A DNA stretch of 64,000 nt from the NCBI RefSeq assembly GCF_022539315.1, contig NC_066313.1, positions 28,929,059 to 28,993,058 of the forward strand. Reading direction: 5' to 3'. A model generated the notes under the pieces. That model ran no database searches. It was not told the origin of the DNA and was given only the letters and a program-made list of their open reading frames with translations. Of the stretch, positions 1-5,975 are shown one piece after another. The translations under genes and the position numbers were made by a program. Origin of the DNA: Serinus canaria (lineage: Eukaryota > Chordata > Aves > Passeriformes > Fringillidae). Each line of letters starts with the position of its first letter. Within the stretch, counting starts at the first letter, position 1.

Positions 1-339
1 GCCCACCTCAGCCCAGTGTGCTGGGAGGAGGTGTCTGAGCAGCCCTTGGCTACACTGGCAAGGAGACCTGCTGGAGCTACCTGTGCGGGTGGCTCTGCCT
101 TGCTGCCACTGCCCCCAGGCAGGGCTGGGACTGGGGCAGCCCCCACCCCAGCTGGCATCTCTGGGGGACACTGGGGATGCTGGCACCAGCCTGCTCTGGG
201 GGGCTGGGAAAAGCATCTCTGTGGCACCCATCTCCCTGCCAGCAGTGCCAGGGGTCATGACAGCTCGCTCTCCCTTCCCTTCTGTTTTCCAGATGAGTTT
301 GCCACGCAGCAATACAGTGCTCCCTGCGCCACAGGTAGG
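1..339 (+). repeat. Left arm of a 339-bp inverted repeat shared with gene B
   Basis: Bases 1-339 match the reverse complement of 5637-5975 with no gaps and two mismatches: one in the intron (ctccctgcc versus ccccctgcc) and one in the exon (cagcaatac versus caggaatac). The identity covers the penultimate intron, the exon and five bases of the next intron (gtagg), then ends abruptly. The left boundary is outside the window. Confidence 0.95.
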
Positions 340-1290
340 TGCACTTGAACAACTGAGATGCTCCAGCAGAGACTGTGGCAAGTTGTCTTGAACTAGAGTC
401 TTTGTAGACCTTGTGTTTCCTTGGCTTGTGTCTACTCTCACCATTTTCTTCACTGTTCCTACTGCAGTCCCCATGTCAGTAGAGAGACCAAAAGCAATGC
501 TGCCACCCAACTTCCTCTGTAAGATCAGATACAGCTTTCATTTTCCTTCCCTGCTTACATCAGTCTCAGTATTACTGCCTTTGTTTGTACAGTGGCAATT
601 GTCTTTTCCTCTGTGTTAGTGTCATTTTATGCAAATAATATTCAGGTCTCTCTTGGGATGGAACATCACACTCAGCCTTTTGTGTCTCTGCCCTTTTTAG
701 GGCCACATCTGCTATGCTGCAGACACTGAAAGGTACAGAGGAATTGTCTCCCAAAAACCTTGGTGAAATGTTGATGTTATTCACATCTCTTTAATGAGGA
801 CCTTTCAAGCTCTTCCCTGGGTTGATTTTGCTTTCTCATGGGAACTGCAGCTGCTGAGAGAGAATGTGTGCTTGGATAGTTCATGTATCTCCAGGACAAA
901 TCTGCCTCCCCTCTCTGTAGCATAGATATTTTGAATGTGTCCAGTCATTCCCATTCTGTTATCTGTCTGCAACTGAGCATTTCCAGGTGAAGCAGTTTCT
1001 CATAGTTTAACAGGCTTGAACTCACATAGCCATCAGGACATCAGCCACAGATATCCAGGGCTCTGGATACCACTCACCAGAATATTTATCTCACTTTGTC
1101 CTTTTCCCACCTCCAGTTGAGGCAGAACAAGAAAATTCCTGAAGAATGCATCTTGTTGGAGCCTTGCTGTATCAGCTCATGTGTTTCTGCCCCTAGAAGA
1201 TCTTGTTAAGGGAGATGTCTTGAAAGGCTAGAGGAGGACACCTCAAAGGCAAAGAGGAAGCAACACTGTAAATAAATTAATTCTTGATTC
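1..1290 (+). CDS. Gene A: 3' end of an alpha-2-macroglobulin-like gene (partial)
   Basis: Two coding exons and the 3' UTR of an A2M-family gene whose remainder lies left of the window. The first exon encodes DEFATQQYSAPCAT, the conserved C-terminal segment of the receptor-binding domain. The second encodes a short acidic tail (VEAEQENS) and a stop. Both junctions are GT/AG and the phases join (ACA G + TT = Val). The tail length and the position of the last intron resemble mammalian A2M, where a short tail also follows the Cys of the APC motif. The 3' UTR is about 150 nt and carries AATAAA at 1271-1276. Bases 1-339 are almost identical, in inverted orientation, to the end of gene B, so A and B are convergent. 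Whether the rest of A is intact cannot be seen. Confidence 0.85.
293..334 (+). CDS. Gene A penultimate coding exon
   Basis: Acceptor ttttccag|ATGAG and donor CACAG|gtagg. The 42 nt read DEFATQQYSAPCAT with a split codon at each end. The exon differs from its gene B counterpart at a single base, which turns Glu into Gln (QEYS to QQYS). Confidence 0.88.
1117..1142 (+). CDS. Gene A terminal coding exon
   Basis: A strong polypyrimidine tract and acceptor (ttttcccacctccag) precede TTGAGGCAGAACAAG. Joined to the G left by the previous exon it reads VEAEQENS and stops at TGA 1140-1142. The short acidic tail after the final Cys is of the length expected in this family. No homologous sequence is recognisable behind gene B. 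Confidence 0.75.
1143..1290 (+). terminator. Gene A 3' UTR and poly(A) signal
   Basis: A canonical AATAAA lies at 1271-1276, about 130 nt after the stop. A T/G-rich stretch follows near 1300-1330 (tctggccttgttttctgtt), as expected for the downstream element. Cleavage is probably close to 1290. Confidence 0.65.
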
Positions 1291-1751
1291 TCATCAGATG
1301 TCTCTGGCCTTGTTTTCTGTTACTGTTATGCTTGTCTCTCTTCCTATCCATGTCATGGCCTGAATTACAATCCAGAGCCATCCTCAGGAATACCAGAAGA
1401 CAGACAACTTTTAGTAGTTGGGAGATTTTTCTCCATAACTGCCAGTTGTTTTAGGAGAGAGGACATCGTATCTCACCCATTATCCACTGGAAGTTTGTCA
1501 CTCTGCCTTTACAGAGGGTGTTTTCTGCTAGGTGATCCTTGGACATAAACCTCTGATCACATATTGCCTTTGACTGCACTGTGAAATCACTGCTGTGAGG
1601 TGCCAGGACACTGGGAACCTGTCCAATCTGATCTTTTTCAGCAGCCCAGATAGAAGTGAAGACCTGTGGGCTTTCCCATTCTCTCAGGGTCTGCTTGTTT
1701 CTAAACAGCTAAAGTGAAATCGGAGAGGGACTGGGAGCTTCAGAGTGTCAC

Positions 1752-2445
1752 TCATAGAATTTTTAGGTCGGAGAGGGCTTTAAGGTCAAGTCCTACCATT
1801 AACCCAGCATTGCTCAGTCCACTGCTAAACTGTGTAGCGTTGCGTGGGGTTGTTGTGACCCAAGCACTTGGCCTCACACCACTTGCCTTGACCCTTGTAT
1901 CCAGCCTGTCCAGATCCTTCTGCAGAGTTCTCCTGCCCTCCAGCAGATCCACACTCCCACCCAGCTTGGTAACATTTGCAAACTGACTGAGGGTGCTCCT
2001 GATGCCCTTGTCCTGATCCCAGATAAAGATATTATACAGGACCAGCCCCAGGTGAGCCCTGGGGACCCCACTGGTGATCAGCTGGATTCTGTAACTCCAT
2101 TCACCACCTCTCCCTGGGCCTGGCCATTCAGACAGCTTTTTACCCAGCAAACAGTGCACGTGTCCAAACCATGAGCAGCCAGATTCTCCAGGAGAATGTT
2201 GTGGGAAATTGTGTCAAAGGCTTTACTGAAGTCCAGGTAACCTATGTCTATTGCCTTTCCCTTATCCATTGCGTGGGCCACCTTGTCTTCTCCTTCTTGT
2301 ATCGAAGGAGATCACACTGGTCAAGCAGGACCTGCCTTTTCTAAACCTCTGCTAGCTGCGTCTGATCACCTGGTTCTCCTGTATGTGACACATGATGGCA
2401 CTCAAGATAATCTTAGGCAAAAATTCAATGAAGAACCACTTTATG
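1752..2445 (-). mobile_element. Truncated CR1 LINE (reverse transcriptase remnant)
   Basis: Read on the minus strand, about 2281-1752 encodes CR1-type reverse-transcriptase segments: DFSKAFDTISHNIL, then TSGVPRAHLGLVLYNIF, then LSQFANVTKLGGSVDLLEGR. The catalytic FADD box is changed to FANV and several frames must be joined, so the copy is dead. The element appears to end at the characteristic tail (reverse complement tcatagaatttttaggt) near 1752, and its 5' part fades near 2445. It lies between the ends of genes A and B. Confidence 0.85.
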
Positions 2446-4082: not shown

Positions 4083-4267
4083 TTTATTTGTATACTTCAC
4101 TTTCCATTCCATGCAGGCATTATTAATGTCATGCTGCAGTGGTGGTGGTGAGGCAGGCAGGTTCCAGCATGTGGGAGGGTTCTTCAGTCATTTCCCTGGT
4201 CTGCTTCCTCTGCAAGGATGAAAGAAGATGGGAGGGAACAGGAGTCAGAGAGATGTCCATCTGCTGT
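4083..4267 (-). other. Candidate terminal exon and 3' UTR of gene B (unproven)
   Basis: Gene B needs one more coding exon after 5642, starting in phase 1. The best-looking acceptor I found is ctccctccgtctctcaaccttag before 4267. After it the frame reads DSRWTSL and stops (4245-4267), and AATAAA on the minus strand follows at 4083-4088. Two alternatives exist. One has acceptor ttatctcctttag before 4988, a tail of VFLTGKVEESLNSHTSVP with its stop at 4933, and AATAAA at 4533-4538. The other is VEA-stop at 3488-3498. None resembles the gene A tail clearly, so this is inference from splice signals and length only. Confidence 0.25.
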
Positions 4268-5636
4268 CTAAGGTTGAGAGACGGAGGGAGCAAGATGTGG
4301 ATATGGAAGCCAGGTTGTGTGTGAAGCGCAGTACAGGAGAGAGAGTTGCTGTTTTACCAGGGTGGAAGGTGACTCCCCACTTGTGTCACCTTCAAGGCAG
4401 TGTGAGGTTGAGAAAGGGCTGAAATTCTCCCTGACCCACTGGGAGAGATAATCAGAGTGGGGTTTGTCACAACTGAGATGTGCACCGTGCAAACAGGAAA
4501 AGCTGGTTGGTGAACCAGTGAGAGAAGTTCTGTTTATTTCTCTGCAAAGAGTGGAAGAAATCTACTGCACTCTGTTGCTCTACTATACAGGGCAGGGAAG
4601 GAAGCTTGGCAGCTGGGATCTGCCTTTTAGTCAGTGCAGGCCATCTCTGAACATCTAGACTAATGGACGAGCCTCTTAAGTAGCAATTTTCCATCACCCT
4701 TTCCAAGAAAGATAAAATCTCTGCCTTTTAACAGAACTGGGGAAAAGTGGCCTAAAACCTAAGGTCTCCCCATGAGTCTCACACTGGGAAACCAGACCAC
4801 ACCAAAACACCCTTTGGAAATGTTTTACTGAAAACTCAGTGACTTATGCATATTTTTCCATGAAGGGAAGTTGTAGGTTCAGAATCAGCAGAAAACAGCT
4901 GTACCTATGGACACTGCTCAGATCAACAAGCATTACGGAACAGAAGTGTGAGAGTTTAGACTCTCTTCTACTTTTCCAGTTAGAAACACTAAAGGAGATA
5001 AATGCCACCATTTAACACCAGCAGAAGGCAAAGCTTTTGCCTTCTCCAGGTCCAAATCACTTTTTCCAAATCTGTTCTCAGGTGTCACAGTCAGATCCCG
5101 TGAAAAACCATTTCCCAGGAACTCTGCTTTCTGGAAGCCTCCATATTCCAAACTCCTGAAACTGGGCAATTGATGCAAAGCAAGACATGCCAGTCTTCAT
5201 ATTGGAAGACTCCAGATAGGAGAGGAGAAATAACTTTGGTCAGAGCTTTTTACAGAAGCTCCTAAATTACCTGTGCTCCCAAGCCAAATACAAATGGCCT
5301 TGCATTGCAGAGAATCTCCCAAAGATGACAGTCCTGACAGCTCAAACTCCAAGTCAATGCTGAGGGCTGCCTGCCCAGGGTTATGAGGCATAGCTGTCTC
5401 CTGAGAGGCCCTGGGACAGCAGGAACCTTATCAGGAAGCAGCTGTTCCTCCAGACAGTAGCAGCCAAAGGCAAACTTGCTGGCTCTGTAACTCCTATGCT
5501 CTCTGTTTTACACACAAGATCTGCGCCTGTAAGTTGGGCTAATGTCATCCAAATTCAAAAAGGAAGAGACAAGTGCTGGCTGGAAGACCAAAATTATTAT
5601 GAAGAAGATGTAGAGAGCAACAAAAGAAAGCAGTAC

Positions 5637-5975
5637 CCTACCTGTGGCGCAGGGAGCACTGTATTCCTGCGTGGCAAACTCATCTGGAAAACAGAAGGGA
5701 AGGGAGAGCGAGCTGTCATGACCCCTGGCACTGCTGGCAGGGGGATGGGTGCCACAGAGATGCTTTTCCCAGCCCCCCAGAGCAGGCTGGTGCCAGCATC
5801 CCCAGTGTCCCCCAGAGATGCCAGCTGGGGTGGGGGCTGCCCCAGTCCCAGCCCTGCCTGGGGGCAGTGGCAGCAAGGCAGAGCCACCCGCACAGGTAGC
5901 TCCAGCAGGTCTCCTTGCCAGTGTAGCCAAGGGCTGCTCAGACACCTCCTCCCAGCACACTGGGCTGAGGTGGGC
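5637..5975 (-). repeat. Right arm of the 339-bp inverted repeat
   Basis: This is the gene B partner of the 1-339 arm. The homology must extend at least to 5975 and may continue towards exon 34 (6252-6354), because the left arm is cut off by the window edge. Confidence 0.95.
5642..5683 (-). CDS. Gene B exon 35 (penultimate coding exon)
   Basis: 42 nt: DEFATQEYSAPCAT. Acceptor ctgttttccag, donor CACAG|gtaggg. The exon lies inside the 339-bp inverted repeat shared with gene A. If the donor is skipped, the frame stays open to 5508 with a hydrophobic tail, which I consider unlikely to be used. Confidence 0.93.

What the first reader, a model, noticed from the sequence alone, without database searches (positions are those of the whole stretch)
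1..5975. Near-identical 339-bp inverted repeat joins the ends of two convergent A2M-like genes
Bases 1-339 and the reverse complement of 5637-5975 differ at only 2 positions with no gaps, although most of the block is intron. Paralogues B and C have unrecognisable introns, so this identity cannot be old. Either the A/B pair arose by a very recent inverted duplication, or gene conversion between the two arms is keeping them alike, or one arm is an assembly artefact. The identity ends exactly five bases past the splice donor, and beyond that point the two genes share nothing I can see.
Basis: partly seen in the sequence, partly recalled or inferred. Interest (0 to 1): 0.75.

Follow-up and report, generated by a model that had tools for sequence, protein, structure and literature searches.

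The report
Ancient gene pair swapping selected exons
Two old, back-to-front copies of a bird blood-protein (protease-trap) gene have kept overwriting the same parts of each other, apparently since before modern birds split, so their working end stays nearly identical while the part that chooses targets drifts apart; a third neighbouring gene shares one of these exons.

Summary
The 339-bp inverted repeat is real (2 mismatches, no gaps), but the window edge cuts it. It is the end of an inverted, convergent pair of alpha-2-macroglobulin (A2M) genes, A and B, each of about 36 exons without in-frame stops. Ten of 34 modelled exons are 97.6-100% identical (fourfold sites 261/264), four intermediate, twenty diverged (95/200). 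Outside two blocks, intron similarity ends within 40 bases of exon edges, mostly within 12. Shared exons have GC3 72% against 55-57% in paralogues C and D. So: old duplication, long-running segmental gene conversion; not a recent duplication or artefact. The thioester exon is also shared with neighbouring ovostatin (96%; 23/25 fourfold sites against 107/308 elsewhere, B-C). It is a new member of a known kind; nine full-text searches listed no report of it.

The parts
1..339 (+). The part inside the window of gene A's near-identical terminal block; full block -461..339
293..334 (+). Gene A exon 35 (DEFATQQYSAPCAT), end of the receptor-binding domain; shared with B
1117..1142 (+). Gene A last exon (VEAEQENS, stop), differs from B's; AATAAA at 1271
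   Evidence: acceptor, ORF, AATAAA; 7 of 8 residues equal to the C-terminus of A orthologues P0001 and P0003
4184..4209 (-). Gene B last exon (EEADQGND, stop), differs from A's
   Evidence: 8 of 8 residues equal to the B orthologue of Agelaius, P0096
5637..6424 (-). Gene B copy of the terminal block (exons 35, 34 and the intron between); contains the reported arm 5637-5975
6425..7202 (-). Unshared island between the two blocks, with exon 33 (6558-6632, 65% identical to A). Of 17 other bird pairs this exon is 96-100% identical as protein in 9, 48-61% in 7, missing in 1
7203..10098 (-). Gene B copy of the main shared block: exons 28-32 with their introns (end of the thioester domain to start of the receptor-binding domain); about 190 bp extra relative to A near 9156-9347
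12536..12722 (-). Exon-sized patch: exon 26 (92.3%)
13840..14026 (-). Exon-sized patch: exon 24, the thioester exon (GCGEQNM), 98.9% A-B and 96.0% with gene C
17307..17480 (-). Exon-sized patch: exon 21 (97.6%), with 40 identical bases of upstream intron
19220..19478 (-). Exon-sized patch: exon 19 (99.6%), Pfam A2M domain
19734..22236 (-). Gene B exons 16-18 around the bait region, unshared (27-56% protein identity between copies, means over the bird pairs)
   Evidence: bait-region position recalled, consistent with the unaligned gap
33198..34222 (-). Gene B exons 2 and 3, intermediate likeness to A (dS 0.19 and 0.38)
4184..38570 (-). Gene B (alpha-2-macroglobulin-like of passerines); exon 1 with the signal peptide lies in the ORF 38244-38570 (exact limits not modelled)
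46898..64000 (-). Gene C (ovostatin orthologue), continuing to 70466 outside the window
53893..54090 (-). Gene C exon 24 (53898-54074), shared with A and B

Best explanation
Genes A and B are an old inverted duplicate of an A2M gene, standing tail to tail about 3 kb apart between their stop codons. Shown: in exons 19, 21, 24, 28-32 and 34 (narrowly also 2 and 26, and 33 in about half of the lineages) the copies are on average more alike within a bird lineage than orthologues are between lineages, while 15 other exons tested as a set have evolved as two separate clades since before crown birds. Inferred mechanism: recurrent ectopic gene conversion. Blocks including introns (28-32, 34-35) have stayed alike enough to pair, so conversion keeps renewing that likeness. 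Where introns drifted apart, tracts shrank to single exons, because purifying selection keeps exon homology while intron homology is lost; hence the sharp ends at exon edges, such as the five bases past the donor. GC-biased repair raised GC in these tracts. Likely consequence (inferred): the thioester and receptor-binding machinery is held in common while bait region and N-terminal domains diversify, and the thioester exon has also been exchanged with ovostatin.
For: Two classes of exon: fourfold sites identical 261/264 in ten exons, 61/73 in four, 95/200 in twenty. 12 of 33 A-B exons are at >=90% identity, against exon 24 alone in A-C and B-C and none in the other 18 pairs of the seven clustered genes. 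Trees: exons 28-32 and 34, A and B sister in 14 of 14 lineages, one A clade rejected with dlnL 778; likewise all 19 pairs with both rows kept in the larger FastTree tree. 15 diverged exons: A clade 100/100, B clade 99/99, window A+B rejected with dlnL 716, p-AU 9e-4. Lineage-private residues: in the ten exons 146 shared by both copies against 81 in one copy only; in diverged exons 12 against 662. Exon 33 is A-type in both copies in eight pairs and B-type in both in hummingbirds, so tracts move piecemeal and both ways. GC3 72.2/72.8% in the ten exons of A/B against 57.1/55.3% in C/D, no excess in diverged exons (Mann-Whitney, one-sided, p=1e-4); block GC 56-65% against 43-44% around. Identity falls with distance from the centre of the pair (Spearman -0.56, p=5e-4).
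Against: No DNA of another bird was available, so silent sites and introns were compared in one genome only; the cross-species evidence is on predicted proteins, some pairs made of two species. Charadrius shows only 105/174 identity in the shared part (its A row is partial and its B row has a branch of 1.05), Egretta 282/311 and Anser 304/340. Exon 35 (scored together with the last exon's tail) and exon 3 are not concerted by mean protein identity. Exon 21 is converted although it is not among the best conserved exons against C and D, so conservation alone does not predict which exons convert. Whether the pair is inverted and adjacent in other birds was not tested. Gene G has GC3 of 73.8% in the same exons without an identified partner, so high GC alone proves little.
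Confidence: 0.94

Rival explanations
1. The A/B pair arose by a very recent inverted duplication and the rest diverged quickly.
For: Near-identity of block introns (19 mismatches in 1949 for -4003..-2037) and the inverted, convergent layout.
Against: Unshared exons between shared ones have high silent divergence; A and B are separate clades with members from emu to sparrows.
Confidence: 0.01
2. Assembly artefact: one arm is a copy of the other made by the assembler.
For: No reads could be mapped here.
Against: One 114.8-Mb contig; arms differ by substitutions, short indels and a ~190-bp indel, with different flanks; shared tracts are interrupted by diverged exons; A and B pair in the same block in 14 bird lineages.
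Confidence: 0.02
3. No conversion: strong purifying selection alone keeps these exons alike.
For: Exon 24 is highly conserved as protein in birds and turtles.
Against: Silent sites are alike too, and in the blocks the introns; copies share lineage-private residues.
Confidence: 0.01
4. The single-exon tracts come from conversion by reverse-transcribed mRNA rather than by genomic DNA.
For: Similarity ends within 3-8 bp of exon edges at exons 19 and 24, as a spliced donor would give.
Against: Exon 21 carries 40 identical intron bases upstream, exon 26 has 10 and 20, and blocks 28-32 and 34-35 include whole introns; lack of intron homology alone also stops genomic tracts at exon edges.
Confidence: 0.1
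5. Repeated independent partial duplication or unequal crossing over in each lineage.
For: The locus is a cluster of seven A2M-family genes.
Against: It would need the same exons, interrupted by unshared exons, to be replaced in place in 14 of 14 lineages; crossing over between inverted copies would rearrange the locus rather than homogenise patches (inference).
Confidence: 0.02

Closest known systems
Mammalian gene pairs in concerted evolution for over 100 My (BMP8A/B, DDX19A/B, TUBG1/2; Carson and Scherer 2009, PMC2720389: abstract, Discussion and 12 passages read)
   Same: Two nearby copies, mosaic of converted and diverged segments in all species examined, raised GC content in converted parts; BMP8A/B is also inverted
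   Different: That paper saw no obvious overlap with protein domains; here the shared part is mainly the thioester and receptor-binding end. Here there are also isolated single-exon patches and a third gene that shares one exon.
Mosaic receptor genes CCR2/CCR5, TLR1/TLR6, EMR2/CD97/EMR3 (seen only as described in the Discussion of PMC2720389)
   Same: Structural or binding regions are proposed to be kept alike by conversion while other functional regions diverge; the EMR set has three genes
   Different: Here secreted protease traps, an inverted convergent pair, and tracts ending at exon edges
GOT1 paralogues of the copepod Tigriopus (PMC3728101: abstract read)
   Same: Mosaic of high and low divergence under continuing conversion
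   Different: Population-level study of an invertebrate, with transferred variation seen in populations
Sex-chromosome palindromes with arm-to-arm conversion (e.g. PMC8981503, search listing with start of abstract only)
   Same: Inverted arms, conversion, GC bias
   Different: There arm-to-arm identity stays above 99%; here only parts of the arms are alike, and sex linkage was not examined

Membership tests
Long-lived mosaic concerted gene pair (criteria of PMC2720389) | Paralogues more alike within than between species in defined segments | tested here: met
[quoted passage not shown]
   exons 29-32 with introns: 97-100% in every 100-bp window from -3900 to -2101; 19 mismatches in 1949 for -4003..-2037
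Long-lived mosaic concerted gene pair (criteria of PMC2720389) | Copies less than 1 Mb apart | tested here: met
   adjacent, stop codons ending at 1142 and 4184
Long-lived mosaic concerted gene pair (criteria of PMC2720389) | Duplication before the radiation of the group | tested here: met
   A and B clades each hold emu, duck, grouse and Neoaves
Long-lived mosaic concerted gene pair (criteria of PMC2720389) | Raised GC in converted exons and introns | tested here: met
   GC3 by exon class and GC of the blocks; introns were not scored apart from exons
Long-lived mosaic concerted gene pair (criteria of PMC2720389) | Geneconv fragments | not tested
   Geneconv was not run; a permutation test of runs of identical fourfold sites was used instead
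Long-lived mosaic concerted gene pair (criteria of PMC2720389) | Exactly two copies in all species | not tested
   other bird genomes were not searchable; protein lists contain isoforms
Alpha-2-macroglobulin family inhibitors | MG, bait-region, thioester (GCGEQ) and receptor-binding domains, near full length, no stops | tested here: met
   Pfam hits for A; B's best PDB match is an alpha-2-macroglobulin, 6tav; models without stops
Perfect palindrome kept by arm-to-arm conversion | Arms >99% alike over their whole length including non-coding DNA | tested here: not met
   introns outside two blocks do not align

The most novel reading that the evidence does not exclude
The A2M, A2M-like and ovostatin cluster of birds is a selected modular system: inverted pairing and conversion keep one common trap machinery (thioester exon in three genes, receptor-binding end in two) while private bait regions and N-terminal domains diversify. 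More generally, conversion is self-sustaining, so that each exon is either locked or escaped, and exon edges are the stable borders of locked tracts for about as long as crown birds have existed.
Probability: 0.3. Interest if true: 0.78.

Novelty: new member of a known kind. Interest (0 to 1): 0.62.

Why it matters
Few vertebrate gene pairs are known in which conversion has acted on the same segments in each lineage examined for so long (PMC2720389 counts three new or confirmed human pairs). This one spans the bird lineages tested, has an unusually clear split between locked and free exons, a plausible functional logic, tracts of single-exon size and a third participant. It also matters in practice: gene trees, orthology calls and short-read mapping of bird A2M, A2M-like and ovostatin genes will mislead if whole sequences are used.

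Tried and rejected
Recent duplication, selection alone, assembly copy and lineage-wise re-duplication were considered and rejected as set out under rivals. My first guess for gene A's last exon (acceptor at 1197, EDLVKGDVLKG) was dropped in favour of 1117-1142 after comparison with orthologues.

The exon-24 amino-acid changes shared by A, B and C are mixed evidence. The T-to-A change occurs in A of Rissa, B of Alca and Larus and C of Larus, Glareola, Chroicocephalus and Dromas, but also in C of a grebe. The I-to-T change of songbirds is not clean: Catharus A and B keep I, and a mousebird, two parrots, some suboscines and lizards have T. I therefore rest the three-gene claim on silent sites in this genome. 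Even there, the run test alone is only moderate for A-C and B-C (observed run reached in 2 and 8 of 2000 permutations).

Rows dropped: Charadrius_A and Opisthocomus_A were left out of the block tree as too gappy. For the careful trees and I used 14 of the 20 A/B pairs at hand, leaving out Egretta, Hummer, Calidris, Charadrius, Larid and Anser; in the tree the five of these with both rows kept also pair A with B. One search used 18 pairs (without Charadrius and Anser). Pairs made of two species: Corvus, Anas, Grouse (used), Hummer, Larid, Calidris. In the test of one A clade four sets of identical rows lay on both sides and were left free. Of the 12 private residues shared in diverged exons, eight are in Grouse, where exons 20, 22 and 23 are also 94-100% alike.

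Literature: nine searches. By title and abstract start, none of the listed papers is about conversion among bird A2M genes. Lists were capped (20 of 45; 20 of 65; 12 of 708), and only open-licence PMC text is held. PMC9363672 was seen in nine passages on ovostatin and macroglobulin; the term gene conversion does not occur in it.
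Full report
Observation. The reported arms are as described: 2 mismatches (positions 233 and 310) in 339 bases, no gaps, and no third copy of bases 1-339 found in the assembly (a lower bound). The window edge hides most of the structure. The window lies at C1:28929059-28993058 of a 1.05-Gb genome; I fetched 150 kb to its left and 80 kb to its right. Coordinates of 0 or below lie left of the window. By its proteins the genome is a songbird's: gene A is 93% identical to the A2M of Camarhynchus, gene B 95% to an A2M-like protein of Agelaius, gene C 94% to an ovostatin-like protein of Serinus.

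Anatomy. Spliced alignment gave seven A2M-family genes without stops in the modelled exons (F is cut at its 3' end by the region I searched): G (+) and F (-), then E (+), A (+), B (-), C (-), D (-). A was modelled from -26326 (exon 2) to 333, B from 34219 (exon 2) down to 5643, 35 and 34 exons; the last exons, 1117-1142 and 4184-4209, were placed by the C-termini of passerine orthologues. The stop codons of A and B are about 3 kb apart. B's best PDB match is an alpha-2-macroglobulin, 6tav. Pfam places A's domains as A2M at residues 684-774, thioester domain 894-1204 and receptor-binding domain 1315-1404.

Mosaic. A and B share two blocks with introns: exons 28-32 (-4755..-2037 against 10098..7203) and exons 34-35 (-461..339 against 6424..5637). 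They also share exon-sized patches at exons 19, 21, 24 and 26 and, less closely, 2 and 3. Mismatches: 19 in 1949 for -4003..-2037, 7 in 788 for -461..339, and 29 in 749 for -4755..-4004, where the 100-bp windows inside are 99-100% and the mismatches lie at the block's start and next to a ~190-bp indel. By exon, ten (19, 21, 24, 28-32, 34, 35) have 97.6-100% nucleotide identity and dS 0-0.05. Four are intermediate (2, 3, 26, 27; dS 0.15-0.61). Twenty have 46-83% identity, with dS 0.93 or more or too high to estimate in 18 and 0.35 and 0.46 in exons 10 and 13. Fourfold sites identical: 261/264, 61/73 and 95/200. The longest run of identical fourfold sites, 84 (exons 28-30), was not reached in 2000 permutations (maximum 60). 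As a control, of the 21 gene pairs of the cluster only A-B (12 of 33 exons), A-C and B-C (1 of 32 each, exon 24) have exons at 90% or more; the other 18 pairs have none.

Edges. Outside the blocks, intron similarity ends close to the exons: 4 and 8 bp at exon 19, 3 and 7 at exon 24, 10 and 20 at exon 26; the longest are 40 bp upstream of exon 21, 35 upstream of exon 27 and 20 upstream of exon 20. The outer edges of the blocks also lie at exons: 12 bp before exon 28, 3 bp after exon 32, 71 bp before exon 34, 5 bp after the true end of exon 35. My explanation (inference) is that intron homology erodes until it meets an exon held by selection.

Other birds. In exons 28-32 plus 34-35, A and B of the window are 99.4% identical (322/324), but each is only 93.2% identical to its Passer orthologue; in 19 unshared exons A-B is 57.6% and the Passer orthologues are 94.0% (A) and 95.4% (B). 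A careful tree of exons 28-32 and 34 (310 columns) joins A with B in 14 of 14 bird lineages, four of them as identical rows, and one clade of all A is rejected (dlnL 778, p-AU 1.8e-70). A tree of 15 unshared exons (612 columns) gives one A clade (100/100) and one B clade (99/99), rejects window A+B (dlnL 716, p-AU 9e-4), and leaves open whether the duplication is older than the bird-turtle split (p-AU 0.063). Three of the 14 pairs combine two species (Corvus, Anas, Grouse). Private residues of a lineage are shared by both copies 146 times in the ten exons against 81 found in one copy; in diverged exons the figures are 12 and 662. By mean protein identity over 18 pairs, copies are more alike than orthologues in exons 2, 19, 21, 24, 26, 28-34, narrowly in 2 and 26. 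Exon 33 is 96-100% identical in nine pairs (eight A-type, one B-type in hummingbirds), 48-61% in eight including the window, and missing in one. Results against: Charadrius (105/174, partial model), Egretta (282/311) and Anser (304/340); exon 3, and exon 35, which my column map scores together with the last exon's tail.

GC and distance. GC3 in the ten exons is 72.2% (A) and 72.8% (B) against 57.1% (C) and 55.3% (D); in the twenty diverged exons 50.7, 52.5, 53.2 and 55.1%. The blocks have 56-65% GC against 43-44% in the rest of both genes and in the spacer. This fits GC-biased conversion, but gene G also has 73.8% in those exons. A-B identity falls with distance from the centre of the pair (Spearman -0.56, p=5e-4), which distance or domain order could cause.

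Third gene. Exon 24, which encodes the thioester motif GCGEQNM, is 96.0% identical between C (ovostatin) and both A and B, with 23/25 fourfold sites identical, against 116/309 (A-C) and 107/308 (B-C) in all other exons (Fisher 7e-8 and 1.5e-8); the pairs with gene D show no such excess. The flanking introns are not alike. Protein changes shared by A, B and C in gulls and allies agree with exchange in other birds, but that evidence is mixed.

Function (inferred). The parts held in common are the A2M-domain exon 19, exon 21, the thioester exon, the end of the thioester domain and the receptor-binding end (exon and domain limits). The parts that diverge are the N-terminal macroglobulin domains and the exons around the bait region (exon 17: 27% between copies, 50% among A and 68% among B orthologues). 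The simplest reading is that both inhibitors must work the same way and be cleared by the same receptor, while they catch different proteases. Whether selection favours the sharing or it persists by itself is not decided here.

Known or new. Conversion acting on the same segments of a gene pair for over 100 My, with raised GC, is known in mammals (PMC2720389: abstract, Discussion and passages read), where mosaic evolution of CCR2/CCR5, TLR1/TLR6 and EMR2/CD97/EMR3 is also discussed. Nine searches of the open PMC library listed no report for bird A2M genes (three lists were capped). I therefore file it as a new member of a known kind, distinguished by single-exon tracts that end at exon edges, fair agreement with protein domains, the inverted convergent layout and a third gene sharing the thioester exon. 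The age 'as long as crown birds' follows from emu, duck and grouse being in both clades; the figure of about 100 My for that is recalled.

Noticed in passing
53893-54090 and related proteins P0271, P0279, P0285, P0286, P0289: The window's ovostatin keeps the thioester cysteine, while ovostatin of chicken (N, two entries), guineafowl (G), quail and bamboo partridge (S) lacks it; these are the only 5 of 314 listed proteins with the GEQNM motif that lack Cys. A megapode and the magpie goose keep it.
   Followed up: partly
-149000..144000 around the window: Seven A2M-family genes form one cluster with a second convergent pair (G and F, left of the window); G and F share no exon at 90% or more (0 of 28 compared), so convergent layout alone does not bring conversion.
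   Followed up: partly
G gene, -147857..-127295: Gene G has GC3 of 73.8% in the exons that are shared in A/B but 58.4% in the diverged set, without an identified conversion partner.
   Followed up: no
50791-50996: Tandem pair of a 103-bp unit (96% alike) in the intron of gene C between its exons 28 and 29.
   Followed up: no
about 36810-37115 and copies at -20697, 73847, 118064, 125269, 136261: Dispersed repeat of about 140-410 bp, 72-83% alike, in both orientations, probably an interspersed element; the spacer near 1750-2480 also reads like an old CR1-type insertion (by eye, from recall, not tested).
   Followed up: no
-28245..-27962 and 38237-38523: The 5' region around exon 1 of A and B is 80% alike over 292 aligned bases, more than the neighbouring introns: perhaps an older conversion tract at the 5' end.
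   Followed up: no
A and B exons 20, 22, 23 in grouse (P0061, P0152): In the grouse pair these exons are also 94-100% alike, unlike in the other pairs (35-76%): a lineage-specific extension of the shared part.
   Followed up: no
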